DNA of 64,000 nucleotides, from contig JAHHGV010000003.1 in assembly GCA_019359695.1 (NCBI GenBank), positions 186,001 to 250,000 of the forward strand, given 5' to 3'. The notes under the pieces are model-generated. The model did not search any database, was not told the origin of the DNA, and saw only the letters and a program-made list of their open reading frames with translations. The position numbers and the translations under genes are program-made. Shown piece after piece: positions 9,194-50,094 of the stretch (positions are counted from its first letter, which is position 1; each line of letters begins with the position of its first letter). Source of the stretch: Brasilonema angustatum HA4187-MV1. Its GTDB lineage: Bacteria; Cyanobacteriota; Cyanobacteriia; Cyanobacteriales; Nostocaceae.

Positions 9194-9271
9194 ACCACTA
9201 GTACCGCAAAGCGGAAGTCAAAAGTCAAAAGTATTATGGAACGGGCTTTTTAGGAATTTTAAATGGTGAAC

Positions 9272-9332
9272 CAGCGCTGCAGGAGGGTTTCCCTCCGTAG
9301 GCGACGGGCGTTCCCGAAGGGTTGCCCTATTT
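9272..9332 (+). repeat. Palindromic repeat element (CCAGCGCTGCAGG family)
   Basis: This is a copy of an interspersed GC-rich element. It begins with CCAGCGCTGCAGGAGGG, contains the self-complementary GGAGGGTTTCCCTCC, and continues with GTAGGCGACGGGCGTTCC. Related copies occur near 15110, 20964, 27757 and 52965. Confidence 0.75.
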
Positions 9333-10384: not shown

Positions 10385-11929
10385 TTACCTCACCGACTTG
10401 AGGCTATCAACTTGCTTGGTAAACAAATTGCTGAAAATGCTCATGACAGTACGATTACGTACCTTAATATTTGCACTTATTGACATCCCTGATTGCAGAG
10501 GTAATTCCTGATTGTTAATACGCAAAAATTGTTTATCTAAGCGTATTTTAGCAGGAAAACTCTCATATGGACGAACTTGTTCAGGTGGCAAGGCATCAGA
10601 ACCAATCCAAACTAACTCACCTTTAATATCGCCAAACTCACTAAAGGGGAAAGAGTCAATTCTAATGTTGACTTTCATTCCTTTTCTCACAAAACCAATG
10701 TCTTTATTGGTGAGAAAAACTTTAGCCGTGAGAGCTTCATCAGGGACAATTTTGAGCACTGGTTGACTAGAACTAGCAACAAATCCGGGAGACTTGGCTT
10801 TGAGGTCGAAAACAATTCCATCAGATGGAGCACGCAGTTCTTGATATTGTAAAGTGACTTGAGCTTGGCTAATCTGACTGTCAATTTCAGTAATCTGCTT
10901 CTCATTTTCTATGATTGCTTTGTTCAAGTCTCTATCAACAGTTGCAATTTGTTTTTCGTTGTCAGCAATTTTTGTGAGTAAATCCTTTTTTGCTCCAGAC
11001 ATTGTATTTAGGAGCTTTTCTTTTGATTGGGCGATCGCATATTGTAAACGCGCTTGCTCCTGCCTTAACTGTTCCATTTCAGCTTGCTGCTGACTGACTT
11101 CCTGTTTTTGCTTGAGGTATTGTACGCGAGAAATTCCTCCTTGTTTAGCAAGTGGTTCAATACCATTAAGAATGGTCTGACTAACATCTTTAACTTGTTT
11201 AGCAGAGGAGAACTGAATTTGCGCTTGACTAAGCTGTCTTTCTAATTTTTCTGTTTCCAATTTAGCATCTGCGAGCCGAGAATTTAATTCTGCTTTGCTA
11301 AATTCTAAACGAGCTTCTTCCTCTGGCGCTAACTGATGATTTTGAGAGTTTTCACTCAACTGAGCACGATACAATCGATTTTCGGCTATCAGCGCTATTC
11401 GATTTTTTGTCAAAGAAGCGATCTCTGGAGGGAGATTAGTTCGCTCAATGAATTGCGGATTTGATAAAGCATTTTTCGCAACAAGTTGGGTACGGTAAAA
11501 TTGAACTTCCTGCATTAATGTGTTGCGAACTTTCTGTAGAGAAAGCAGTTGCGATCGCGCTGTCGTTGGATCTAGCCTTAACAGTACATCACCACGGTGT
11601 ACCTTTTGCCCATCCTTAACATAAACAGCTTTCACAACCCCGTTCACAGGTGTTTGTATTTCTTTTACTGTATCTTGCGGTTCAAGCTTCCCTTGAGCTG
11701 GAACTGCTTCGTCAATTTTGGCAAAATTTGCCCAAATCACTACCAAAGTTGTCATTCCCAACAGTCCCCAAAGAATCACCCGTGAGAACAAAGGCGACTG
11801 TTTCAGCACAACAGATGGTGTAGATTCGTTCTGTTGGACAATTTGTACAGGTACTTTAATCTCAGTGTCTAGTATTTTTCCAGAGACAACACGTTTGTGA
11901 TCAAGTTTCATTGTTTTCAATTCACTCAT
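10385..11929 (-). CDS. HlyD-family membrane fusion (adaptor) protein
   Basis: A 514-residue periplasmic adaptor of a type-1 secretion system. One transmembrane helix (about residues 49-68, ILWGLLGMTTLVVIWANF) follows a cytoplasmic N-terminus. Next come a biotinyl-lipoyl-like half-motif (TPVNGVVKAVYVKDGQKV), a long alpha-helical hairpin rich in Gln/Glu/Leu (about 130-355), the second lipoyl half (LRAPSDGIVFDLKAK) and a beta-barrel domain. It links the inner-membrane ABC exporter to an outer-membrane TolC protein. It is downstream of the ABC gene on the same strand, separated by 127 bp of heptamer repeats. No cargo gene is adjacent; a TolC-like protein lies far away at 45893. Confidence 0.92.
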   Translation of the reverse strand: MSELKTMKLDHKRVVSGKILDTEIKVPVQIVQQNESTPSVVLKQSPLFSRVILWGLLGMTTLVVIWANFAKIDEAVPAQGKLEPQDTVKEIQTPVNGVVKAVYVKDGQKVHRGDVLLRLDPTTARSQLLSLQKVRNTLMQEVQFYRTQLVAKNALSNPQFIERTNLPPEIASLTKNRIALIAENRLYRAQLSENSQNHQLAPEEEARLEFSKAELNSRLADAKLETEKLERQLSQAQIQFSSAKQVKDVSQTILNGIEPLAKQGGISRVQYLKQKQEVSQQQAEMEQLRQEQARLQYAIAQSKEKLLNTMSGAKKDLLTKIADNEKQIATVDRDLNKAIIENEKQITEIDSQISQAQVTLQYQELRAPSDGIVFDLKAKSPGFVASSSQPVLKIVPDEALTAKVFLTNKDIGFVRKGMKVNIRIDSFPFSEFGDIKGELVWIGSDALPPEQVRPYESFPAKIRLDKQFLRINNQELPLQSGMSISANIKVRNRTVMSIFSNLFTKQVDSLKSVR

Positions 11930-11941
11930 AGCCGTAGTTTT

Positions 11942-12056
11942 TATCAGTTATCAGTTATCAGTTATCAGTCATCAGTCATCAGTTATCAGTTATCAGTCAT
12001 CACTGTTCCCTGTTCCCTGTTCCCTGTTCACTGTTCCCTGTTCCCTGTTCACTGAT
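11942..12056. repeat. Heptanucleotide repeat tract between ABC exporter and HlyD genes
   Basis: Two adjacent tracts fill almost the whole intergenic gap: degenerate TTATCAG/TCATCAG heptamers (about 11942-12000) followed by CTGTTCC/CTGTTCA heptamers (about 12003-12053). This is typical cyanobacterial STRR sequence. Its place inside a presumed operon means it would be transcribed. Confidence 0.85.
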
Positions 12057-15041
12057 TTAAAGTTGTGCTTCTTGTTGTTGATAAAGGCAGTAGTAACGTC
12101 CCTTTTGCTCCATCAGTTCATTGTGGGTTCCTTGTTCTGCAACTAACCCTTTTTCTAGTAGCAAAATGATGTCAGCGTTCTTGATTGTACTTAAACGATG
12201 GGTAATAAAAAACACTGTTCTTCGTCTAAATGCTTCTGCCAAGTTGTCACAAACTTGCCGTTCAGATTGATAATCTAGAGCACTGGTTGCTTCGTCGAGA
12301 ATCAACAAGCGAGGGTTTTGTAAGACTGTACGAGCAATAGCAATACGCTGTCGCTGTCCTCCAGATAAGGATGAGCCTCTCTCTCCAACTCTGGTGTTAT
12401 AGCCATTGGGCAAAGACATAATAAAGTCATGAGCTGCAGCAACTTTGCTTGCTGTCATAATTTCATCAGTTGTGGCGTCAGGATTTGTCAGTGCAATATT
12501 TTCCTGTATGGTTCCGTCAAACAAAAGTGAGTCTTGAAGCACCATGCCAATCTGACGACGCAGGGAGTAAAGTTCTATTTTGGAGATGTCGTAGCCATCG
12601 ATGAAAATTCTGCCAGACTCTAAGTCATACAGTCGTGGTAAAAGTTTCATCAAAGTGCTTTTACCAGAACCACTTTGTCCGACAATACCAACAAATTTTC
12701 CGGTTGGGAAATCCAGGTTAATATTATTCAACTGAAGTGGAGCAGTTGGTGTGAAGCGAAAGCAGACGTTTTCATACTTGACAGTACCATCAATAGCAGG
12801 TATAGGAATGTTTTGACTGTCTTCATCAACTTCTGAGGGAGTATCCAAGATATCTGCAAGGCGTTCTAGAGAGAGAGCCGTTTGTTGGAAGTTCTGCCAC
12901 AATTGGGTTAATCGTAATAAAGGAGCGGTGACGTAACCAGAAATAATCCGAAAGGCAATGAGTTGTCCTAAAGTGAATTGTCCTTTGAGGACTAAGTAGG
13001 CTCCTACCCATAACACAAGTAAGGAAGAGACTTGGTTAAGAAAATTGCTGGTGACACTAGCAGCCGTGGAAGTGACAACAGTTTGGAATCCAGCGGTGAC
13101 ATAATTACTGTAGTATTCTTGCCACCGCCAGCGCGATCGCAATTCAATATTTTGGGCTTTGACTGTTTGAATACCTGACAGCGCCTCGACTAAATAAGAT
13201 TGTGTTTCAGAGTAACGTTCAGCCTTAAAACGCAGTTGACGGCGCATGATTGAGGAAAAAACTATCGTCAGAAAAGCAAACAAGGGTACAATCGCCAAAG
13301 CTACAAGAGTCAAAATCCAACTGTAAACCAGCATCACCGCGATGTAGATTGTCGAAAAAACTGCGTCCAACACAACTGTTAAAGCAGTTCCTGTCATAAA
13401 AGAGCGAATGTTTTCCAGTTCACTGGCGCGAGTGGCTAACTCCCCAACAGGACGTCGTTCAAAATAGCGCAAGGGTAAACGAAACAAACGGTCAATAATT
13501 TCAGAGCCTAAAGTCAAGTCAATCCGGTTAGTCGTATCAACAAAAAGATAGGTGCGGACACTCGTTAAAAGTCCTTCAAAAACAGCCATGATTAAGAGCA
13601 AAATCCCCAATACGTTCAGGGTTTCAAAGCCGTTCTGAATAATCACTTTGTCGATAATGATCTGGATGATTAAGGGATTAGCCAGACCAAACACTTGGAC
13701 AAAAAAGGAAGCAATCAGAACTTCCAAGAGAACTTTGCGATATTTCAGCAAAGAAGGGACAAACCAACTTAAACTAAATCGCTTTCTAGGAGTATACTTG
13801 GCAACTTTCAGCAGTAAAACCTGACCTTCTTGACCCCAATTTTCAACAAAATGATCAGGATCTTGCTGGACAATCCCAACTTCTGGTACTCCCAGGACTA
13901 GCTTTTTCTCGCTAATTTCATAAACGATAGCGAAAGTATCTTGCCAGCGAATCATAGCTGGAGCTTGCAGTTTTGTGATTGCTTTTGCTGACACGTTTAT
14001 CATTTGAGTATTTAACCCAATGAGTTCACAAACAGCACCGCAAAGCTGTAGTGAAAGAGTTTGAGTGCGCGAAATCTGGTTGTTGAGGATTTGATCAATC
14101 ACATCCCGGCGAAAGGGTATATTTAAATGCTGGCTCAGCATTTGGAAGCAAGCTAAAGTCGCCTTTAGAGGACCTCTACCATGAACATGAGGATATTTTG
14201 GCTGTGATTGAGTATCTGATGGTTTTTCTAACCTACGAGGATGCTCTGGTGCTAATGGTACTTGTTGTAGTAAAGGGTCTATCCTTAAGGAATCTTTGGT
14301 TCTAGATATAGATGCAGAGGCAGAAAGGGTTGCCCGAGGCAAACCGACTAAGCGAACATAACCAAAAGTTTGTACCTCTAGATACGTCATGGCATCGTTT
14401 AGTTGTAAGCGGGTTCCCACAGGAAAATCTTTAAGTATCCCACCACTGACAAACCACACCAATTGAGGATCTAGCTGATCCAAAGGTATTGTCTCTTCTA
14501 GGAACGTGCAGACAACTGCTTCGTCTAAAACTTTGAGAGTCAGTTCTTTGATATCTGTCGCACCATATGAAGCCAAGACAGTTTCACTATCAGCTCGCTT
14601 TGCTAACTCAGTACTCAGTAGTTCAAAAACTTCAACCGCAGTACAGCGATTTTCAAAACAAATAGAAATAGCAGGAGAATGACTCAGCAACGCTAAAAAC
14701 TCTGTGGCGCTTAGAGTCAGACAAATGGTTTCTGTAGAGGCTATGACTGTTTCGCATGGAATCCCTCTTATTAAACTAGTCCAACCCAGGATTTCTCCTT
14801 TTTGAACTAATTGCAGCGTTTCAGGCATCTGAGCATTCGGGTCATAACCCAGCAAGCGGGCTTGTCCTTGATAAATGATAAATATTTGAGAAGGCATTTG
14901 TTCCCGCACCAAAACGCTCTGACCCATGTGGTAGCGTAACATCTCAAACTTTGGAACTAATTTTGCCAGTTCTTGTGTCGGCAGTTGATTGAAGGGAAAT
15001 AATTCAGAGATGAACTCTTGTATGGAAGCAGTATAAGTCAT
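12057..15041 (-). CDS. Type-1 secretion ABC exporter with cNMP-binding and degenerate C39 domains
   Basis: This 994-residue protein is an ATP-driven exporter. Order of parts: cyclic-nucleotide-binding-like domain (about 20-140, FIIYQGQARLLGYD), a second poorly defined segment, a peptidase C39-like domain (about 290-420), six transmembrane helices (about 430-710), and an ATPase domain with Walker A GQSGSGKST, signature LSGGQRQRIAIAR, Walker B LLILDEATSALD and H-loop THRLS. In the C39 region the consensus Cys-Gly-x-x-Cys reads ATLAC, so the catalytic cysteine is missing, and the catalytic His also appears absent (WQDTFAIV). It therefore resembles the HlyB C39-like domain, which binds but does not cut substrate. 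It is the upstream gene of the exporter-adaptor pair. Confidence 0.92.
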   Translation of the reverse strand: MTYTASIQEFISELFPFNQLPTQELAKLVPKFEMLRYHMGQSVLVREQMPSQIFIIYQGQARLLGYDPNAQMPETLQLVQKGEILGWTSLIRGIPCETVIASTETICLTLSATEFLALLSHSPAISICFENRCTAVEVFELLSTELAKRADSETVLASYGATDIKELTLKVLDEAVVCTFLEETIPLDQLDPQLVWFVSGGILKDFPVGTRLQLNDAMTYLEVQTFGYVRLVGLPRATLSASASISRTKDSLRIDPLLQQVPLAPEHPRRLEKPSDTQSQPKYPHVHGRGPLKATLACFQMLSQHLNIPFRRDVIDQILNNQISRTQTLSLQLCGAVCELIGLNTQMINVSAKAITKLQAPAMIRWQDTFAIVYEISEKKLVLGVPEVGIVQQDPDHFVENWGQEGQVLLLKVAKYTPRKRFSLSWFVPSLLKYRKVLLEVLIASFFVQVFGLANPLIIQIIIDKVIIQNGFETLNVLGILLLIMAVFEGLLTSVRTYLFVDTTNRIDLTLGSEIIDRLFRLPLRYFERRPVGELATRASELENIRSFMTGTALTVVLDAVFSTIYIAVMLVYSWILTLVALAIVPLFAFLTIVFSSIMRRQLRFKAERYSETQSYLVEALSGIQTVKAQNIELRSRWRWQEYYSNYVTAGFQTVVTSTAASVTSNFLNQVSSLLVLWVGAYLVLKGQFTLGQLIAFRIISGYVTAPLLRLTQLWQNFQQTALSLERLADILDTPSEVDEDSQNIPIPAIDGTVKYENVCFRFTPTAPLQLNNINLDFPTGKFVGIVGQSGSGKSTLMKLLPRLYDLESGRIFIDGYDISKIELYSLRRQIGMVLQDSLLFDGTIQENIALTNPDATTDEIMTASKVAAAHDFIMSLPNGYNTRVGERGSSLSGGQRQRIAIARTVLQNPRLLILDEATSALDYQSERQVCDNLAEAFRRRTVFFITHRLSTIKNADIILLLEKGLVAEQGTHNELMEQKGRYYCLYQQQEAQL

Positions 15042-20897: not shown

Positions 20898-21170
20898 GGG
20901 TATAAGGGGGTAAGGGTGTAAGGGTGTAGGGGCAAAACAAGTCAAAACCATAAGGTGCCAGTGCGGGGGTGAAGCAGCGCTGCGGGAGGGGAGCCAGTGC
21001 GTTGCGGTGAATCCAGCGCTGCAGGCGGGTTTCCCGCCGTAGGCGACTGGTGTTAGCGAAGCGGAACCGAAGGTTCTCCCCGGAGGGAGCCAGTACTTGA
21101 TGAGGGTTTCCCTCACTTGGTATCTGGCGTTGGGGTTCCCCCCGTTGTAGCACCTGGCGTTTTCCCTCCT
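20898..21170 (+). repeat. Repeat-rich intergenic block with palindromic elements
   Basis: The block starts with GTAAGGGTGTAAGGG-type heptamers (about 20898-20935). It continues with several palindromic units: CAGCGCTGCGGGAGGGG near 20970, CCAGCGCTGCAGGCGGG with GGCGGGTTTCCCGCC near 21012, GCGAAGCGGAACCGAAGG near 21056, and AGGGTTTCCCTC near 21103. The 447-bp gap before the lipid kinase gene has no supported gene; open frames here are repeat by-products. Confidence 0.8.
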
Positions 21171-27727: not shown

Positions 27728-27858
27728 TACAGTGAACAGTGATAACTGATAACTGTTCACCCTTCGGGGAGAACCTTCGGTTCCGCTTCGCTAACGCCAG
27801 ATGCCTACGGAGGGAAACCCTCCTGCAGCACTGGACTCACTGGTAACTGATAACTGAT
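27728..27858 (-). repeat. Palindromic repeat flanked by heptamer repeats
   Basis: The core (27757-27841) is the reverse complement of the 9272 and 21012 elements: CCAGTGCTGCAGGAGGG, GGAGGGTTTCCCTCC, GTAGGCATCTGGCGTTAGCG, GGAACCGAAGGTTCTCCCC on the minus strand. Both sides carry TGATAACTGATAACTG heptamers. The pattern suggests an element sitting within, or spreading with, STRR sequence. Confidence 0.8.
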
Positions 27859-33843: not shown

Positions 33844-34665
33844 CTAAATATCATTTGGTCGATAAACTGCACCAAATGAGTGATCACTATTAACCTCAAT
33901 CACTAAATCAACAAATGTGGGAGATTTAACTAACGGATTGATGAATAATTCTGGGTGCAAAGAACACCAAAAGTAATTTACAAATTGCTCCACTTGTTTT
34001 TCACTCATTCCTGACTTACCAGCAGCAATCATTTGCCGTTCCGCTTGTTTGCGCCACTCTAAGGAAAGACGATAATCTTTGGGATATAGCAAAATTAGGT
34101 TATCTAACTGCTCCCACAGTGGTAGGTAATCGCTGAGTTTGTTATTCATCTGACGGGCAAACGCTTTATCCTCATCTGTTATGATAGGGGGTGGTGCGGT
34201 GTCAAACGCAGTAGGCTCAATTGGTCGTACACCCACAAACCAACCTTCAAACAAGACAATATCTACATTCTCTACAATTTCTGGAGTCGTTCTATCGCCA
34301 GCACCCGCGTGGAGAGATTTGTCGAAACGGGGAACTGCAACAGGACTTTTGCGCTGGCGGATCTGCTGCAGTATTGTTAAACCCAATTCTACATCGTGTG
34401 TTCCTGGAGGACCACGCCAAACTAAGCGCGGTTGTTTCTGTTTTAATGCCAAGCGCTGATCATATGTTTTGTACAAGTCATCTAAAGATAAACTCAGCGT
34501 ACGGTATCCCAACTGTTTGAGAATCGCGCACACAGTATTACACATCGTCGTTTTGCCTGTTCCCTGTCCTCCTAATATACCTTGTATGAACGGACGCCCC
34601 AATTGTTGGTGATTAGATACTAGTTGTTTTGCTAAAGATAGCCAAAGATTATTTTCATTAGTCAT
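33844..34665 (-). CDS. glyK: D-glycerate 3-kinase (plant/cyanobacterial GLYK type)
   Basis: A 273-residue P-loop kinase that returns photorespiratory glycerate to the Calvin cycle as 3-phosphoglycerate. The Walker A motif is GGQGTGKTTMC (about residues 32-42). Other family segments are SLDDLYKTYDQRL, WRGPPGTHDVELG, VPRFDKSLHAGAGDR and VLFEGWFVGVRP (Walker B region). The last two are highly typical of GLYK. Its start codon lies directly against a heptamer repeat tract, so its leader is made of repeat sequence. Confidence 0.93.
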   Translation of the reverse strand: MTNENNLWLSLAKQLVSNHQQLGRPFIQGILGGQGTGKTTMCNTVCAILKQLGYRTLSLSLDDLYKTYDQRLALKQKQPRLVWRGPPGTHDVELGLTILQQIRQRKSPVAVPRFDKSLHAGAGDRTTPEIVENVDIVLFEGWFVGVRPIEPTAFDTAPPPIITDEDKAFARQMNNKLSDYLPLWEQLDNLILLYPKDYRLSLEWRKQAERQMIAAGKSGMSEKQVEQFVNYFWCSLHPELFINPLVKSPTFVDLVIEVNSDHSFGAVYRPNDI

Positions 34666-34705
34666 TAGTCATTAGTCATTAGTCATTAGTCATTAGTCAT
34701 TAGTC
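34658..34705. repeat. (TCATTAG)n heptamer tract upstream of glycerate kinase
   Basis: Six to seven near-perfect copies of TCATTAG/AGTCATT abut and include the first codons of the kinase gene. A C/T-rich CCCTTCT-type tract follows (about 34725-34808), filling the gap to the DUF565 gene. Confidence 0.85.
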
Positions 34706-34814
34706 AAAAATAATTTTTTTCTACTCTCTTCCCCCTGCCCCGTTCGGCTGCCCCCTGTGCTCCCTTCTCCCTGCCCCCTTCTCCCTTCTCCCTGCTCCCT
34801 TCTCCCTTTTCCGT

Positions 34815-35147
34815 TCACGAACCAAGCTTGAAAGCTTCCAGAAACAAGCTGTACATAAAACCGATTTTAAGGATATTGAGAGATTCTATCCAAAGCGCCT
34901 GTCGCTCTCGTATGCTACGACCGTAGTATATCCGGCTGCCGACTTCTGTTAATGCCAATAACACTCCAGCAACAACAATGTCCCATTCAGCAGTTTGTCC
35001 AGATGTGGTGGCAACTGCGCTTCCCAGAAAAAAACCGAACAAACAACTAATTATCAAAACCGAAAACCGTCGCCAAGGATTGAAAAACCATAGCCGCAAG
35101 CGCAATGCAATGGCATTGAATAAGTTGTTTAGGCGTGTGTTTTGCAT
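34815..35147 (-). CDS. DUF565 / Ycf20-like membrane protein
   Basis: The 110-residue protein starting MQNTRLNNLFNAIALRLR matches the Ycf20 (DUF565) family conserved in cyanobacteria and plastids. Marks are WFFNPWRRFSVLIISCLFGFFLGSAVAT (first membrane helix), a second hydrophobic stretch WDIVVAGVLLALTEVGSRIYY, and a C-terminal segment LNILKIGFMYSLFLEAFKLG. In algae and plants Ycf20-like proteins are linked to thermal energy dissipation; the cyanobacterial role is not clear to me. I prefer 35147 over the frame start at 35204, since families begin at MQNTRLN. Confidence 0.87.
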   Translation of the reverse strand: MQNTRLNNLFNAIALRLRLWFFNPWRRFSVLIISCLFGFFLGSAVATTSGQTAEWDIVVAGVLLALTEVGSRIYYGRSIRERQALWIESLNILKIGFMYSLFLEAFKLGS

Positions 35148-38227: not shown

Positions 38228-41200
38228 TTAATCTGAGGTTTCCAAAGTTTTATTAATCTCATTTAGTAAGTTCTCCATTGATATGGAGCGAGGTAAGATT
38301 TGGGAGGCAAGAGTACTTATGACAGTTTCTATTGACTCCAACTGGGGAATGTGAGTTTGCTCATCTTCAACCTGATCAGAATTTAACCGCTGATCAAGGA
38401 GTAAAACTGGTGGTAAGTCGAAAGGCAACTGTTGCAACGCTTTGAGGGCTGAGTATACCTCTTTGTTGATGCTAGACTCTCCCAGGCAAATGAGCAGTAG
38501 ATCAACACTTTGATGGCGAATTTGTTGTAGCAGTTCTGCCCAAGATCGACTCATGGAGGCTTTGAACCCACCTGTTTGCAGGTACTGAATCAAAGCTTGA
38601 AACCACTCAGAACCACGAGAGATAATCCAAGGACACGGAGTATTTTCCCCAGCAATCGGGCTATTCAATGAGAAATTTTTTGGTGTACGACAACCCTTAA
38701 CCTGCTTGTGAGTTGTATCTGGTAAATCTGGCAGTATCCCTAAATCTACCACTAAGATGTTGGGTCGGCAGTAGCATGTATCAGATGCAATTTGCAGAGC
38801 TGATAATAAAGCATCTGTTTTGCCGCCGTTATGATTTTTATCTGTGCCCAATGGCGTTAAGCAAGGAAACACAGAAAGCCCAGGCATCACAGAAGCAGCC
38901 TGCGTGGTTGACACATTACAGGTGACAAGCGGTAGATTCGCTAAACGGGGGTGTAATGAGAGTTGTTCCAGCAAAGCTTCGGCTGCTGGCATTTCTGTAT
39001 CCAGCAAAACTACATCAAACTGCCAAACCCGAGTTAGCAATTCTGCCTGATCCAAGTCATCCACTTCTATAACCCGATGCTGTTGAAGTAACGATTGCGA
39101 AGTCGAAGATTCACTATCAGGATGAACCAACTTCAAAATTTTTAATGGTGTTTTGTTAGCAAAAATTTCTTCATCATCTGATTTTTGCTGCTTTTGTTCT
39201 GGTGGAGTACACAGACTTTCTATCAACGGTGTTAAGACTTGATGCTGTACTGGCAAACTCAAGAAACCATCTGCTTGATTGGCAAATGCTTGCTCTTTTT
39301 CAGCTCCTGTTGCTGTCACAATGGTAGGAATATGAGATGTTGCGACATCCGACTTGAGTAAGGTCAGTACATCCCAACCTGACAGCAAGGGGAGCAACGG
39401 ATTGAGGAAGATAGCTTTGGGTTGCAAGCGTCGAGCTTTTTCTACAGCCTCACATCCTGATCGGGCAATCACAACTCGGTAACCCAAACCTGTCAATTGT
39501 TCGGTCAAATCTTCTATATACCGAGCAACTGCTTCCACAACTAAGACGAGGGATTTAGAAGAAGTCAACTGATGGGTTGTAGACGCCTGAACGGCGGCTT
39601 CCCGTAAAGCCCAAGGTGACTTTCCGTAGACGCCCGTGGAATGGTTAGACAAATCGAATGACGGCTTTGCTTGTGTAGGCGACTGCGTTTGCGATAAGCC
39701 CGCTTGCTGACGCTTTGCGTATCGCGTTGACGTACCTTGTCTGTGGGATTTAGGCGGAACTTGCCCTGGCGCAAAAGCCGTGCCTTTGGCATAAGTCATA
39801 CCCGTTTGCCCGATTCGTGCCGCAGGCATAAGGCTTGTCGTCAAGTGGGGTTGGGTTGCGTTGATGGGTTGTAGACGTTCTGTAGGCGTCTTCCCAGATC
39901 CAAGGTGGTTTGCCGTAGACGCCCGTAGAGCATCTTTTTGGGTTGATGGGGCAGTAGGATGATGCGGCGCAAAAGAAATTGTTCCCATCTCCTCATCTGC
40001 CAATCTCCCCGACTCTTTGGGAGGACTGGGTGGAAGAAGTAGTGTAAACTGGCTACCTTTACCCTCACGCGACAAGAAGCTAACATCACCACCGTGAAGA
40101 CGAGCTAAGGCTCTGGTTAAGACAAGCCCCAAACCTGTTCCTTCATGCTGACGGGTGAGAGGATTTTCAAGTTGTTGGAATTTTTGAAAGATTAAATGCT
40201 GTTGATGTTCTGGAATACCAATACCTGTATCCCAGACTGTAAAGGCAATCCAACCCTCCCAACGACTAACCCCAAGTCCAATTTCACCAGCTGTTTCAGT
40301 AAACTTAAAGGCATTGGAAAGCAGGTGTACTAGCATTTGGCGCAAGCGCAACTCATCCGCCACAATTTGCTCTAAGCCTGGTTCAATTGAGAGGGTGAAT
40401 TGGTGTTCTTGTGGAGGCGTACTTTGAGCAAGTGAGTTTGAGGAAGCTTTGTTAGTTTGGGTATGAATAGCTTTTGCCTCAGAGACAGCACGCTCAGACA
40501 CTTTTTGAATGTTGGCGTTGGTGAGCGTAAGCTCCATTTGTCCCGTTTCCATACGGGTTAAATCCAAAATATCATTAACCACACTCATCAGGTGGCGTCC
40601 ACTTTGGTGAATCAGTCCTGCATAACGGGCTTGACGCTCGTTTAATTCTCCCAACTGCTGATCCACCAGCAACCGCGATAATCCTAAAACCGCAGTCAGA
40701 GGAGTTTTGAGTTCATGACTAATACAAGCTAAAAACTCATCTTTTAACCGATTGAGTTGAATTAAATCGGCATTTTTCGCCGCCAGTTCTTTGGAAAGCT
40801 GCTGCTGCTCTGTGACGTCAGTGGCTAGCATCAGCCACAACTCACTATTGAGTGCTGAGTTTTTGGTAGGCAGAGGTGTTTTTGAATCTGTACTCAAGAC
40901 TTTCAATTCAGGACTATCTAAAGGGATTTTGGCAAACTGCCAAACCCGCTCCTGACCATTTTGCACTTCTACTATGCAGGTACAAGTCCCTTGTTGGCTA
41001 TCTAAAAAGCAGCGATTTGGTGCCGGATTTTCAACTATTGGCTGCTCTTGAAGGTTATGAGTGTGAGTGTCAGGAGCCACCCCCAGTGTTGAGCGAGGTA
41101 ACACATCTTTATGAGGCATAACTTCGCTTCTAAGTGACGAAGAATTTTCTTGAGAAGAATGCTGATTATTACTCAAAAAAGAGGAAATTTTGGCTGCTGT

Positions 41201-42040
41201 TTGAGTCGCGTACTGTAATTTTTTGGAGGAGACTTTTGCCAAAATCGTTTCTACTTGTCGCCGGACTCCTTCTGGATCTTTTAATGCTCCCAATTGCTGC
41301 CACCAAGCCGGATTTTGCGTCACCACTTCACCGTTGCTTGTTTGTAGCGTTAAAGGCCAAGGCAGGCGTTCTAATAACTGCACAAGTGGCTTACATTCTC
41401 GTTTTTGCTCGCCTGTATGAGTTTTCTCAGTGGTTGCCCTAACTCCAGCGACTTTGGTGTTGTCATCACCAAGAGTATCCACAGATGACTTTTGAGGTGC
41501 TTTCTTTGAACTTGTCCGCTTAGTCCCCTTATGAGTCTCAATTTGGAGTTTTTGTGTTGTCAACAGTTTCAACAAGCGTAAGCTATCCACAAGCCCCAAA
41601 AATTTGCCATTTGAGTCAACCAGTGCCCAATCTAAATTCGTGTTTTCTTGAATCTGCTGGGAACCAAGAAACGAACTCAATTGCTCTATACGCAAAGATG
41701 CTGGTATTGTTTGTATAGGTTTAATTAACCCTTGACCGATTGTGGAAAGGGGTTGCTGTAAATCTAAATAGTTAGAATCACCTTTGCCTTGACCTGCTGT
41801 CAACAATTGTGGTAGCAAACGGGCAGAGTAAACCAAGCCTAACAAGCATTTTTGCTTATCTAAAACTGCTAGGCGATCGCCGGAGGCGGGGCTTTGCCCA
41901 TCACGAAAAGCGCGGCTCCCTTCCGGAGCATGGCACTGCTGTTGTTGAAAAATGTCCAGCACAGTTGCCAGAGTAGCTGTTTCTACGCAGCTAGGCACGG
42001 TTGCTATAAAGTCAGAAAGCGGGTATTGTAGCATTGACAT
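38228..42040 (-). CDS. Hybrid histidine kinase with CBS-like input and receiver-like modules
   Basis: The 1270-residue protein has several modules. The N-terminus (about 1-175) resembles a pair of CBS-type repeats (LAVLDKQKCLLGLVYSARLL; WALVDSNGKFLGLVDSLRLL). A PAS-like region (about 225-430) precedes a histidine kinase core with the H-box FLACISHELKTPLTAVLGLS (about 440-460), and HATPase with N-box LLSNAFKF, DTGIGIP and GTGLGL. After a repeat-derived linker come three receiver-like domains (about 835-945, 965-1045, 1140-1230). The first lacks the phosphoacceptor (IFLNPLLP), the second keeps an Asp (VVLLDTEMP), and the third is degenerate. Ligand and partner are unknown. It is convergent with the glycosyltransferase gene. 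Confidence 0.87.
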   Translation of the reverse strand: MSMLQYPLSDFIATVPSCVETATLATVLDIFQQQQCHAPEGSRAFRDGQSPASGDRLAVLDKQKCLLGLVYSARLLPQLLTAGQGKGDSNYLDLQQPLSTIGQGLIKPIQTIPASLRIEQLSSFLGSQQIQENTNLDWALVDSNGKFLGLVDSLRLLKLLTTQKLQIETHKGTKRTSSKKAPQKSSVDTLGDDNTKVAGVRATTEKTHTGEQKRECKPLVQLLERLPWPLTLQTSNGEVVTQNPAWWQQLGALKDPEGVRRQVETILAKVSSKKLQYATQTAAKISSFLSNNQHSSQENSSSLRSEVMPHKDVLPRSTLGVAPDTHTHNLQEQPIVENPAPNRCFLDSQQGTCTCIVEVQNGQERVWQFAKIPLDSPELKVLSTDSKTPLPTKNSALNSELWLMLATDVTEQQQLSKELAAKNADLIQLNRLKDEFLACISHELKTPLTAVLGLSRLLVDQQLGELNERQARYAGLIHQSGRHLMSVVNDILDLTRMETGQMELTLTNANIQKVSERAVSEAKAIHTQTNKASSNSLAQSTPPQEHQFTLSIEPGLEQIVADELRLRQMLVHLLSNAFKFTETAGEIGLGVSRWEGWIAFTVWDTGIGIPEHQQHLIFQKFQQLENPLTRQHEGTGLGLVLTRALARLHGGDVSFLSREGKGSQFTLLLPPSPPKESGRLADEEMGTISFAPHHPTAPSTQKDALRASTANHLGSGKTPTERLQPINATQPHLTTSLMPAARIGQTGMTYAKGTAFAPGQVPPKSHRQGTSTRYAKRQQAGLSQTQSPTQAKPSFDLSNHSTGVYGKSPWALREAAVQASTTHQLTSSKSLVLVVEAVARYIEDLTEQLTGLGYRVVIARSGCEAVEKARRLQPKAIFLNPLLPLLSGWDVLTLLKSDVATSHIPTIVTATGAEKEQAFANQADGFLSLPVQHQVLTPLIESLCTPPEQKQQKSDDEEIFANKTPLKILKLVHPDSESSTSQSLLQQHRVIEVDDLDQAELLTRVWQFDVVLLDTEMPAAEALLEQLSLHPRLANLPLVTCNVSTTQAASVMPGLSVFPCLTPLGTDKNHNGGKTDALLSALQIASDTCYCRPNILVVDLGILPDLPDTTHKQVKGCRTPKNFSLNSPIAGENTPCPWIISRGSEWFQALIQYLQTGGFKASMSRSWAELLQQIRHQSVDLLLICLGESSINKEVYSALKALQQLPFDLPPVLLLDQRLNSDQVEDEQTHIPQLESIETVISTLASQILPRSISMENLLNEINKTLETSD
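39560..39965. repeat. Repeat-element sequence inside the hybrid kinase gene
   Basis: This part of the coding region, a linker between the kinase core and first receiver, carries recurring GTAGACGCCCGT (near 39627 and 39916), TTGCCGTAGACGCC/TTTCCGTAGACGCC and GGGTTGTAGACG (near 39573 and 39864) units. It encodes low-complexity peptide. A separate GC-rich GGAGGCGGGGCTTTGCCC insert lies at about 41880-41935 near the N-terminus. Confidence 0.65.
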
Positions 42041-48682: not shown

Positions 48683-49186
48683 ATGAATTATCTTATTGCC
48701 GTTTTAGCTGACCGCATCCAAGCAGAAGCTGCTTATCTAGCTTTAGAAAAAGAAGCGATAAAATCTACAATTTTGGGTAGAGGTTATAAAACTGCTGATG
48801 AATTTGGCTTGATTGACCCCAACGAGCAAGCAAAGAAGCAAACTCAGTTCATGGCTGTTTGGCTGGTACCCTTTGGATTTTTCGCAGGTATTACTTTTAG
48901 CCTCCTCACTGGCTTGGACACTTTTGCTTGGGCAGGTGAAATTGGCAATCACATTATTGGTGGACTGTTAGGCGCTGGTGCAGGCGCTATGGGTAGTGTG
49001 TTTGTCGGTGGTGGAGTCGGTTTATTGGTTGGAAGCGGTGACGCCTTACCTTACCGCAATCGCTTAAATGCTGGCAAATACTTGATTGTCGTTCAAGGTT
49101 CTGAAATTCTTACCCGTCAAGCAACCCGTGTTTTACGCCAGTTTGAACCAGAAAATATTCAAGGTTACGCTGCACCTAGGGAATAG
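48683..49186 (+). CDS. Conserved glycine-rich membrane protein
   Basis: A 167-residue protein. The soluble N-terminus (MNYLIAVLADRIQAEAAYLALE) resembles a ferredoxin-like/ACT-like small domain. Two hydrophobic segments follow: FMAVWLVPFGFFAGITFSLL and a Gly/Ala-rich IIGGLLGAGAGAMGSVFVGGGVGLLVGSG. The C-terminus has KYLIVVQGSEILTRQATRVLRQF, looking like a second half of the small domain. Glycine-zipper helices suggest membrane insertion or oligomerisation. Similar proteins are common in cyanobacteria; function unknown to me. Confidence 0.72.
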   Translation: MNYLIAVLADRIQAEAAYLALEKEAIKSTILGRGYKTADEFGLIDPNEQAKKQTQFMAVWLVPFGFFAGITFSLLTGLDTFAWAGEIGNHIIGGLLGAGAGAMGSVFVGGGVGLLVGSGDALPYRNRLNAGKYLIVVQGSEILTRQATRVLRQFEPENIQGYAAPRE

Positions 49187-49188
49187 TA

Positions 49189-49313
49189 ATCAGTGAACAG
49201 TGAACAGTGAACAGTGAACAGTGAACAGTGAAAACTGGTAACTGGTAATTGATAACTGCTAAGTTGTAACTAGATAACTGATAACTGATAACTGATAACT
49301 GATAACTGTTTAA
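49189..49313. repeat. Heptanucleotide repeat tract (CAGTGAA and TGATAAC)
   Basis: Five to six tandem CAGTGAA units (49191-49229) are followed by degenerate AACTGGT/AACTGAT units and four or more TGATAAC units (about 49270-49308). This fills the entire gap up to the next start codon, so the leader of the S4 gene is repeat-derived. Confidence 0.88.
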
Positions 49314-49314
49314 A

Positions 49315-50094
49315 ATGTTGCCACGGGAAGAACTTTTAAAAGGTGTTGAAAATCGAGATAGTATAGCTCGTGTGATTGACCAGGCGGAACTTGCCATCAA
49401 AACTTGGGAAGTGGTTTTCACTGATTTTCTGTCTCCTCCAGAGTTAGCAGAAATCATGGTGGTGTTTAGCCGTCTGACAGAAGTGCAGTTGGTGGTTTGG
49501 GGTGGATATCCCCAAGCTGAACGCAAAAGAGTGGCGATCGCCCGTTCCGAAATTCCTTTGGATCAATCTCAAGTCGCACTCACCGCTTTAGACATAGCCG
49601 GAAATTTCTTGTTTGATACCGCCACTCACCGCGACTTTTTGGGCGCAATGTTGGGAACTGGGATTGTCCGTGAAAAGACGGGGGACATTATTGTACTCGG
49701 CGAACGGGGCGCACAGGTAATCGTCGTACCGGAGTTAGCAGAGTTTTTGGAAATGAATCTTAAGCAGGTGCGATCAGTTCCCGTGAAAACTCAGCCTATA
49801 GATTTGAGTGAGTTGAAGGTGCGGGAACCCAAGAAAAAAGAACTAACCACTGTGGAAGCTTCTTTAAGGTTGGATGCGATCGCCTCTGCTGGTTTTGGAA
49901 TGTCCCGTAGCAAAATGGTTGAGTTAATTGACAGCGGAGATGTTCGCGTCAACTGGAAGGAAATAACTCAAGCAAGTTCTCAACTAAAAACAGGCGATTT
50001 AATCGCCATTCGTAGTAAAGGACGTTTAGAAGTTGGGGAAATTGCTGTTACTAAAAAAGACCGCTACCGCGTACAGTTAACAAGATTTATGTAG
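49315..50094 (+). CDS. Photosystem II S4 domain protein (YlmH-like)
   Basis: A 259-residue RNA-binding-type protein. The N-terminal domain (LLKGVENRDSIARVIDQAE, FTDFLSPPELAEI, VVWGGYPQAERKRVAI, DFLGAMLGTGIVREKTGDIIV) matches the YlmH family; the C-terminal S4 domain (about 183-245, LRLDAIASAGFGMSRSKMVELIDSGDVRVNW) binds RNA. In photosynthetic organisms the family is annotated as photosystem II S4 domain protein because of a reported PSII role, though its activity may lie in translation or ribosome rescue. The ATG abuts a repeat tract with no strong ribosome-binding site. Confidence 0.9.
   Translation: MLPREELLKGVENRDSIARVIDQAELAIKTWEVVFTDFLSPPELAEIMVVFSRLTEVQLVVWGGYPQAERKRVAIARSEIPLDQSQVALTALDIAGNFLFDTATHRDFLGAMLGTGIVREKTGDIIVLGERGAQVIVVPELAEFLEMNLKQVRSVPVKTQPIDLSELKVREPKKKELTTVEASLRLDAIASAGFGMSRSKMVELIDSGDVRVNWKEITQASSQLKTGDLIAIRSKGRLEVGEIAVTKKDRYRVQLTRFM

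What the first reader, a model, noticed from the sequence alone, without database searches (positions are those of the whole stretch)
39560..39965. Palindromic repeats invading the hybrid kinase gene
The linker between kinase core and first receiver is encoded by recurring GTAGACGCCC and GGGTTGTAGACG units like interspersed repeats found elsewhere. The frame stays open over about 135 codons, so an intergenic-type element has become protein-coding. A second repeat-like insert lies near 41880-41935. It changes spacing between signalling modules.
Basis: partly seen in the sequence, partly recalled or inferred. Interest (0 to 1): 0.6.

Follow-up and report, generated by a model that had tools for sequence, protein, structure and literature searches.

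The report
Small mobile repeats inside a kinase
In this cyanobacterium, short repeats that normally lie between genes or inside a common 8-letter palindrome have become part of a signalling protein beside the circadian clock genes, probably adding floppy loops, without breaking the reading frame.

Summary
The gene (38228-42040, minus strand; 1270 aa; CBS-like N-terminus, HisKA, HATPase_c, receiver; beside kaiABC-like ORFs) has a 157-aa linker between ATPase and receiver; 92 other ortholog rows have 23-70 aa (median 46). The linker is a mosaic of interspersed repeats: two GTAGACGCC units of a mostly intergenic family (39 exact 10-mers in 8.5 Mb, control 12), one 27-nt element flanked by the halves of a HIP1 octamer (7 copies in the genome), and pieces of two other families. 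The second site (41876-41929) is cleaner: a 54-nt insert in a HIP1 octamer (GCGATCGC), made of nested 30- and 24-nt elements with hairpin stems. The same codons carry in-frame inserts of several sequences in 11 of 110 ortholog rows (9 of 83 on a tree, at least 6 state changes). Best reading: SDR5-like small mobile elements (recalled from Elhai 2008; insertion in HIP1 read in Elhai 2015) plus REP-like repeats, kept where they preserve the frame and fall in a predicted CBS loop and a predicted disordered linker; probably near-neutral. This is a known kind of phenomenon, with one HIP1 site serving as a replicated natural experiment.

The parts
38228..42040 (-). Hybrid histidine kinase gene, 1270 aa: CBS pair (N-terminus), HisKA 433-500, HATPase_c 562-671, Response_reg 832-938
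   Evidence: ORF; Pfam; CBS matched by 51 of 51 aligned members at E<=0.1, best 2.5e-9, the window member 0.002 and below the curated cut-off
39548..40018 (-). 157-aa linker between ATPase and receiver, a mosaic of interspersed repeats; predicted disordered
   Evidence: AlphaFold pLDDT under 50 over model residues 249-402, in a model that is poor overall
39574..39606 (+). GTAGACGCC-family unit, copy 1 (antisense to the gene)
   Evidence: nhmmer 17.1 bits, E=7.9e-4 in 464 kb
39914..39939 (+). GTAGACGCC-family unit, copy 2, same orientation
   Evidence: nhmmer 11.1 bits, E=0.059; overlaps the 30-nt direct repeat, 87%
39691..39725 (-). Element B: GCG + 27 nt + ATCGC, i.e. flanked by the two parts of a HIP1 octamer; 7 copies in the genome, the other six 28 or 29 nt long
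   Evidence: congener G002 has GCGATTAC there and lacks the element; RNA fold z=-2.36
39642..39699 (-). Piece of another interspersed family (AGTCGCCTAC..GCCGTCATTCG..), 76-80% to the longer copies elsewhere
39816..39845 (-). 30-nt piece with a 27/30 match elsewhere in the genome (one further short match)
41876..41929 (-). 54-nt in-frame insert at a HIP1 octamer in the first CBS domain: outer 30-nt element (41900-41929) followed by an inner 24-nt element (41876-41899) nested at its end
   Evidence: G004 has the 30-nt element alone; AlphaFold places it as a pLDDT<50 loop between helix 22-34 and strand 54-58
41873..41880 (-). HIP1 octamer GCGATCGC, intact at 84 of 99 empty ortholog sites

Best explanation
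Very small mobile repeats have inserted repeatedly into this kinase gene and were kept because they preserve the frame and fall where protein structure matters little. Two kinds are present. (1) Elements of 24-30 nt with hairpin stems that sit in HIP1 (SDR5-like): at the second site the inserts repeat GCGAT (or a variant of it) at their end. (2) Units of a mostly intergenic GTAGACGCC family and pieces of two other families in the interdomain linker. Shown: copies elsewhere in the genome, empty sites in relatives, nesting, covariation in hairpin stems. Predicted: position in a loop and a disordered linker. Inferred: mobility (no transposition was observed), the route (RNA intermediate or DNA hairpin with a cut at HIP1), selection for frame, and near-neutrality of the encoded peptide.
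For: Repeats elsewhere. Empty and filled sites: 11 of 110 rows filled, 84 of 99 empty rows with intact HIP1; nested inserts in the window (30+24 nt) and in Calothrix CSU_2_0 (54 nt, read as 24+30). Recurrence: at least 6 state changes on an 83-row tree (quick method, gains and losses not told apart). Stems: 24-nt set, 98.4% of cells paired, covariation 0.189 against 0.054 shuffled; 30-nt set, 94.7%, 0.101 against 0.043. Same process in other own genes: in CbiE/T the insert is in own, G005, G006 and, altered, G004, and absent in G001, G003 and four of four other-genus rows. Linker dN/dS 0.73-1.09 against 0.21-0.30 for the rest in the three closest congeners. Predicted loop and disorder.
Against: The 3n excess in long ORFs (9 of 10 against 9 of 21; p=0.015) is partly circular, because an ORF is only found intact across the element if the frame survived; the 200-aa threshold was set after seeing the data; two of the ten are in this same gene (7 of 8 without them, p=0.038). 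Element sets came from patterns that demand part of a hairpin; in an unpatterned 464-kb sample 1 of 24 GCGAT..CGATCGC spacers had a perfect 5-bp stem, and 23 of 1274 GCGAT sites in all. Single-sequence folds are at best modestly better than shuffles: z -0.68 to -2.36 for five typed elements, -1.23 for the window's inner element, +0.07 for the whole insert. The L059, L105 and L116 inserts have no perfect 4-bp stem at the start. Scytonema-clade inserts share letters and may be one event; L105 and L116 are sisters. More distant congeners give linker dN/dS 0.41-0.47. Empty sites in CbiG/CobJ of two congeners are not HIP1.
Confidence: 0.83

Rival explanations
1. The linker and CBS loop are fast-evolving disordered regions that grew by replication slippage and local duplication, and matches to repeats elsewhere are incidental.
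For: The two ends of the linker are duplicates of each other (30-nt repeat 289 nt apart); the linker evolves fast.
Against: At least 39 further matches in the own genome; a profile made without this gene finds one linker copy at E=7.9e-4; inserts of 24, 27, 30, 45, 48 and 54 nt with different sequences at one octamer, which slippage does not readily give.
Confidence: 0.08
2. The inserted peptide is functional: the longer linker or CBS loop tunes coupling between kinase core and receiver, and was selected.
For: The frame is kept in the congeners whose linker was read; linker length differs by lineage (100, 157-158, 187 aa within the genus).
Against: dN/dS near 1 in close congeners; disorder predicted; different sequences in different lineages; similar elements in unrelated genes.
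Confidence: 0.07
3. Recombination or gene conversion between repeats brought ready-made mosaics from intergenic arrays into the gene, rather than element-by-element insertion (may act together with the best explanation).
For: The linker holds pieces of several families side by side, as the intergenic copies seem to.
Against: At the second site single and nested states exist in sister lineages (30 nt alone in G004, 30+24 in the window); G002 lacks element B within an otherwise similar linker.
Confidence: 0.2

Closest known systems
SDR5 small dispersed repeat of filamentous cyanobacteria (Elhai et al. 2008, Genome Res; paper not held, content recalled; one point read as a passage of Elhai 2015, PMC4390886)
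   Same: Precise insertion in HIP1 between nucleotides 3 and 4 (passage); small hairpin with compensatory changes and nesting (recalled for SDRs).
   Different: The 28-30 nt forms lie outside the 21-27 nt recalled for SDRs. Identity with the SDR5 consensus could not be checked. The emphasis here is on frame-preserving copies in genes and repeated use of one ortholog site.
GTAG-tagged REP elements, including cyanobacterial GTAG-12/15/16 (PMC3733652, abstract and passages seen)
   Same: Unit begins GTAG, is mostly outside long ORFs, and occurs sometimes inside genes, as that paper reports for REPs.
   Different: Consensus folds no better than shuffles; no profile match in the six Y1_Tnp loci; identity with GTAG-12/15/16 not tested.
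Rickettsia palindromic elements in protein genes (review PMC10969869, passages seen)
   Same: Repeats inserted in frame in unrelated genes and translated.
   Different: RPEs are about 150 bp and belong to another phylum; sequences not compared.

Membership tests
SDR5 (HIP1-nested small dispersed repeat) | Sits inside HIP1, between nucleotides 3 and 4 | tested here: met
   Second site: GCGAT-[insert ending GCGAT]-CGC in several lineages, placement ambiguous within the repeated GCGAT. Element B: GCG-27 nt-ATCGC, though the one empty site seen is not an intact HIP1. Feature read.
SDR5 (HIP1-nested small dispersed repeat) | Hairpin secondary structure supported by compensatory changes (recalled) | tested here: met
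   sets of typed rows, mostly from patterns that require part of one stem; four of the five both-sided pairs in the 24-nt set rest on a single row each
SDR5 (HIP1-nested small dispersed repeat) | Size 21-27 nt (recalled) | tested here: inconclusive
   Inner element 24 nt and element B 27 nt fit; outer element is 30 nt
SDR5 (HIP1-nested small dispersed repeat) | Published consensus sequence | not testable with these tools
   Elhai 2008 not held
GTAG REP / REPIN | GTAG tag at one end of a palindrome | tested here: inconclusive
   Tag present; consensus fold z=+0.72
GTAG REP / REPIN | Association with a RAYT (Y1 transposase) gene | tested here: inconclusive
   Six Y1_Tnp matches in the own genome; 0 of 6 loci carry a profile match; RAYT and IS200 not told apart
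GTAG REP / REPIN | Mostly extragenic | tested here: met
   Of 28 sites outside this gene with a locus (30 of 39 sites had one), 25 have no ORF of 200 aa or more across them

The most novel reading that the evidence does not exclude
HIP1, which lies mostly inside ORFs in this genome, works as a landing pad that directs tiny hairpin-bearing mobile elements into coding DNA. Because frequent element lengths (24, 27 and 30 nt) are multiples of three, these elements act as a lineage-spanning generator of short protein loops, hitting the same codons of orthologs again and again.
Probability: 0.33. Interest if true: 0.65.

Novelty: new member of a known kind. Interest (0 to 1): 0.43.

Why it matters
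The kinase gives a replicated natural experiment: one HIP1 site, intact in 84 of 99 empty ortholog rows and filled by small elements of different sequence in several lineages, with single and nested states. That makes the poorly understood mobility of very small bacterial repeats, and the role of HIP1 as a target, open to direct comparison and test. It also shows how selfish DNA can lengthen a signalling protein without breaking it.

Tried and rejected
Rejected: slippage alone (different inserts at one octamer). Rejected: the GTAGACGCC unit as a stable palindrome. Weakened on recheck: the 3n test as evidence of selection, since an ORF can be seen across an element only if the frame survived. 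Tried without result: GTAG profile near Y1_Tnp genes (0 of 6 loci); unpatterned hairpin excess in 464 kb (1 of 24 spacers; too few); Elhai 2008 full text (not held). Paper searches for small dispersed repeats, HIP1, in-frame repeats and SDR5: only PMC4390886, PMC3733652 and PMC10969869 were opened, by passages; the others were judged from listings. The first ortholog alignment took wrong-strand ORFs and was redone.

Rows dropped: L040 and L072 (linker cut by contig end) from the length statistics. Six of the 30 listed loci were left out of the GTAG profile: two in this gene, one reverse duplicate, three off-consensus by eye (some that stayed in are also off-consensus). The 24-nt covariation set (14 rows) leaves out elements with another stem partition (own inner, L132, L133) and rows that repeat a kept row; the 30-nt set (10 rows) leaves out other lengths, one identical copy, L206 and the two G151 copies. 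The tree used 83 of 110 rows. For structure prediction 51 and 30 rows were chosen.

Full report
What was checked. The gene at 38228-42040 (minus strand) encodes a 1270-aa protein with HisKA (433-500), HATPase_c (562-671) and a receiver (832-938), and an N-terminal CBS pair, matched by 51 of 51 aligned members at E<=0.1 (the window member itself 0.002, below Pfam's cut-off). It is divergent from three ORFs that read as kaiA, kaiB and kaiC (43395, 43858, 44262; names from recall, not searched).

The organism. The nearest named ortholog record is Brasilonema sp. CT11 (94%), then Scytonema tolypothrichoides VB-61278 (92%) and Brasilonema bromeliae (84%) (the window's own genome may be left out there). 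The window's genome is G000, 8.5 Mb in 98 contigs.

The linker. Between the end of the ATPase and the receiver the protein has 157 aa. I compared 110 ortholog rows: own, 29 others for which one search gave loci (a match was found in 59 of 59 genomes), and 80 of 137 genome contigs matches kept; some genomes seem to be in both sets. Sixteen rows have 100 aa or more, two are cut by contig ends, and the other 92 have 23-70 aa, median 46. The long ones with a place on the tree lie in the Brasilonema/Scytonema clade, plus L058. Within the genus the linker is 158 aa in G001, G003 and G004, 187 in G002, 100 in G005 and G006. G011, of another genus, has 157 aa of mostly different, also repeat-like sequence (its repeats were not searched for in its own genome). 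So the expansion is lineage-level and still changing.

What the linker is made of. Against its own genome the 406-nt stretch matches itself and at least 39 other places at E<=1 (40 of 93 candidates scored), on four parts of the query. (a) The GTAGACGCC unit: the exact 10-mer occurs 39 times against 12 for the reversed pattern. Thirty sites had loci; two are in this gene; of the other 28, 25 have no ORF of 200 aa or more over the site. Many share the context TTTCCCGACTTGTAGACGCCC followed by GGAGGGCGGCTTCCCG or a variant. A profile from 24 of them, built without this gene, finds 39574-39606 at E=7.9e-4 and 39914-39939 at E=0.059 in 464 kb. (b) Element B at 39691-39725 reads GCG + 27 nt + ATCGC, the two parts of HIP1 around an insert; the genome has 7 such copies, the other six of 28 or 29 nt and without an ORF of 200 aa across them. 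Congener G002 lacks it and has GCGATTAC there. (c, d) Pieces of two further families.

The second site. At 41876-41929, 54 nt interrupt a HIP1 octamer whose codons read Cys-Asp-Arg in most orthologs. Congener G004 has only the outer 30 nt; the inner 24 nt follow in the window. In 110 ortholog rows the site is filled in 11 and empty in 99; of the empty ones 84 keep GCGATCGC. Inserts, by row: 54 and 30 nt in Brasilonema (own; G004 and CT11), 24 nt in Scytonema hyalinum and G011, 27 nt in Scytonema NIES-4073, Tolypothrix campylonemoides and HT-58-2, 48 nt in Anabaena subtropica, 45 nt in Nostoc parmelioides, 54 nt in Calothrix CSU_2_0 (24+30 nested by my reading). On a quick ML tree of 83 rows without the insert columns, presence/absence needs at least 6 changes. 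Gains and losses are not told apart; Scytonema-clade inserts may be one event, and the two 45/48-nt rows are sisters.

The element. The window's inner 24-nt element with its HIP1 halves folds as two hairpins closed by the octamer ends (z=-1.23). Of the five HIP1-nested sequences folded (z -0.68 to -2.36; one typed with a base that differs from the window, one joined), two show that form, one shows two hairpins without the closing helix, and two fold otherwise; the whole 54-nt insert is no more stable than shuffles (z=+0.07). Covariation is the better evidence. On 14 distinct 24-nt elements 98.4% of cells pair and the covariation score is 0.189 against 0.054 shuffled (0 of 500 reach it): the column pair 10/14 has four pair types, the other four pairs of that stem change on both sides in one row each, the closing helix never varies and the second hairpin shows no both-sided change. 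On 10 distinct 30-nt elements 94.7% pair, 0.101 against 0.043 (0 of 500), with both-sided changes in both hairpins, while the number of further pair types is not above the shuffles (431 of 500 reach it). The search patterns fixed part of the first stem in most rows, but not the pair 10/14 nor the second hairpin. At the ortholog site itself, where no pattern was used, 8 of the 11 element sequences written out have a perfect stem of at least 4 bp right after GCGAT or its variant (two of the eight are near-copies), against 7.5-9.3% in random sequence. The GCTC form occurs 16 times in the own genome (control 0) and in 11 of 148 sampled genomes of the order, own included, some by chance-like matches; the seven other same-family genomes in that sample had none.

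Frame. Of 31 HIP1-nested elements found by four patterns (one copy shared), 10 have an ORF of 200 aa or more across them, and 9 of those 10 are 3n long; of the other 21, 9 are (one-sided Fisher p=0.015; 7 of 8 and p=0.038 without the two in this kinase). This is partly circular, as a frame-breaking insert would have hidden the ORF, and the threshold was set after seeing the data. It shows that intact ORFs carry mostly 3n elements, not how many were lost. Seven of the eight other long ORFs have a Pfam family, among them type III pantothenate kinase, a glycosyltransferase, CbiG/TP_methylase and a TPR-CHAT protein. Sister species give empty sites: in CbiE/T the insert is present in own, G005 and G006, altered in G004, absent in G001, G003 and four of four rows of other genera (G002 not covered); in CbiG/CobJ it is present in own, G003, G004 and G005 and absent in G001 and G006, where the site is not HIP1. 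HIP1 itself lies mostly in ORFs (412 of 444 strand-counted hits in 464 kb; 77% of bases in ORFs).

Consequence for the protein. AlphaFold gives the second insert as a loop with pLDDT under 50 between helix 22-34 and strand 54-58 of the first CBS domain (mean pLDDT 74.7). The linker is under 50 over model residues 249-402 (mean 55.4, a poor model). dN/dS against the three closest congeners is 0.73-1.09 in the linker and 0.21-0.30 in the rest, from few changes; against three more distant ones 0.41-0.47 and 0.23-0.25. This fits a tolerated, weakly constrained spacer whose frame is kept.

Known or new. Elhai 2015 (PMC4390886, passages) states that SDR5 inserts precisely between nucleotides 3 and 4 of HIP1. 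PMC3733652 (abstract and passages) reports GTAG REPs in cyanobacteria and REPs within genes. The MITE review PMC10969869 (passages) describes in-frame Rickettsia elements. So the kind is known. I did not find repeated in-frame use of one HIP1 site across orthologs in the listings of seven searches of an open-licence library that lacks Elhai 2008; that paper may hold coding examples.

Verdict.

Noticed in passing
39227-39547 (receiver, minus strand; protein aa 832-938): The receiver has Asn where the phospho-acceptor Asp is expected (IFLNPLLPLLSG); this Asn is invariant in 30 of 30 aligned rows, so it is probably a pseudo-receiver, in a kinase beside kaiABC-like ORFs. Position of the Asp assigned by eye.
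   Followed up: partly
L226:1186-3009 (own genome, C61): A 608-aa open stretch carries the GTAGACGCCC consensus in a repeat-like mosaic in frame from about aa 105, perhaps a second own gene with this family translated; no ortholog was compared.
   Followed up: partly
11929-12060, 34657-34816, 49178-49315: Heptamer-type tandem repeats (ATCAGTT, TTAGTCA, CAGTGAA and similar) in the window.
   Followed up: no
9271-9319, 21007-21138, 27760-27840: Other dispersed repeats (CCAGCGCTGCAGG..GGTTTCCC..), inverted copies up to 81 nt at 90% in the window.
   Followed up: no
L240 (CbiE/T ortholog of G004): G004 carries a longer, different insert within the CbiE/T insert, apparently another nested case.
   Followed up: partly
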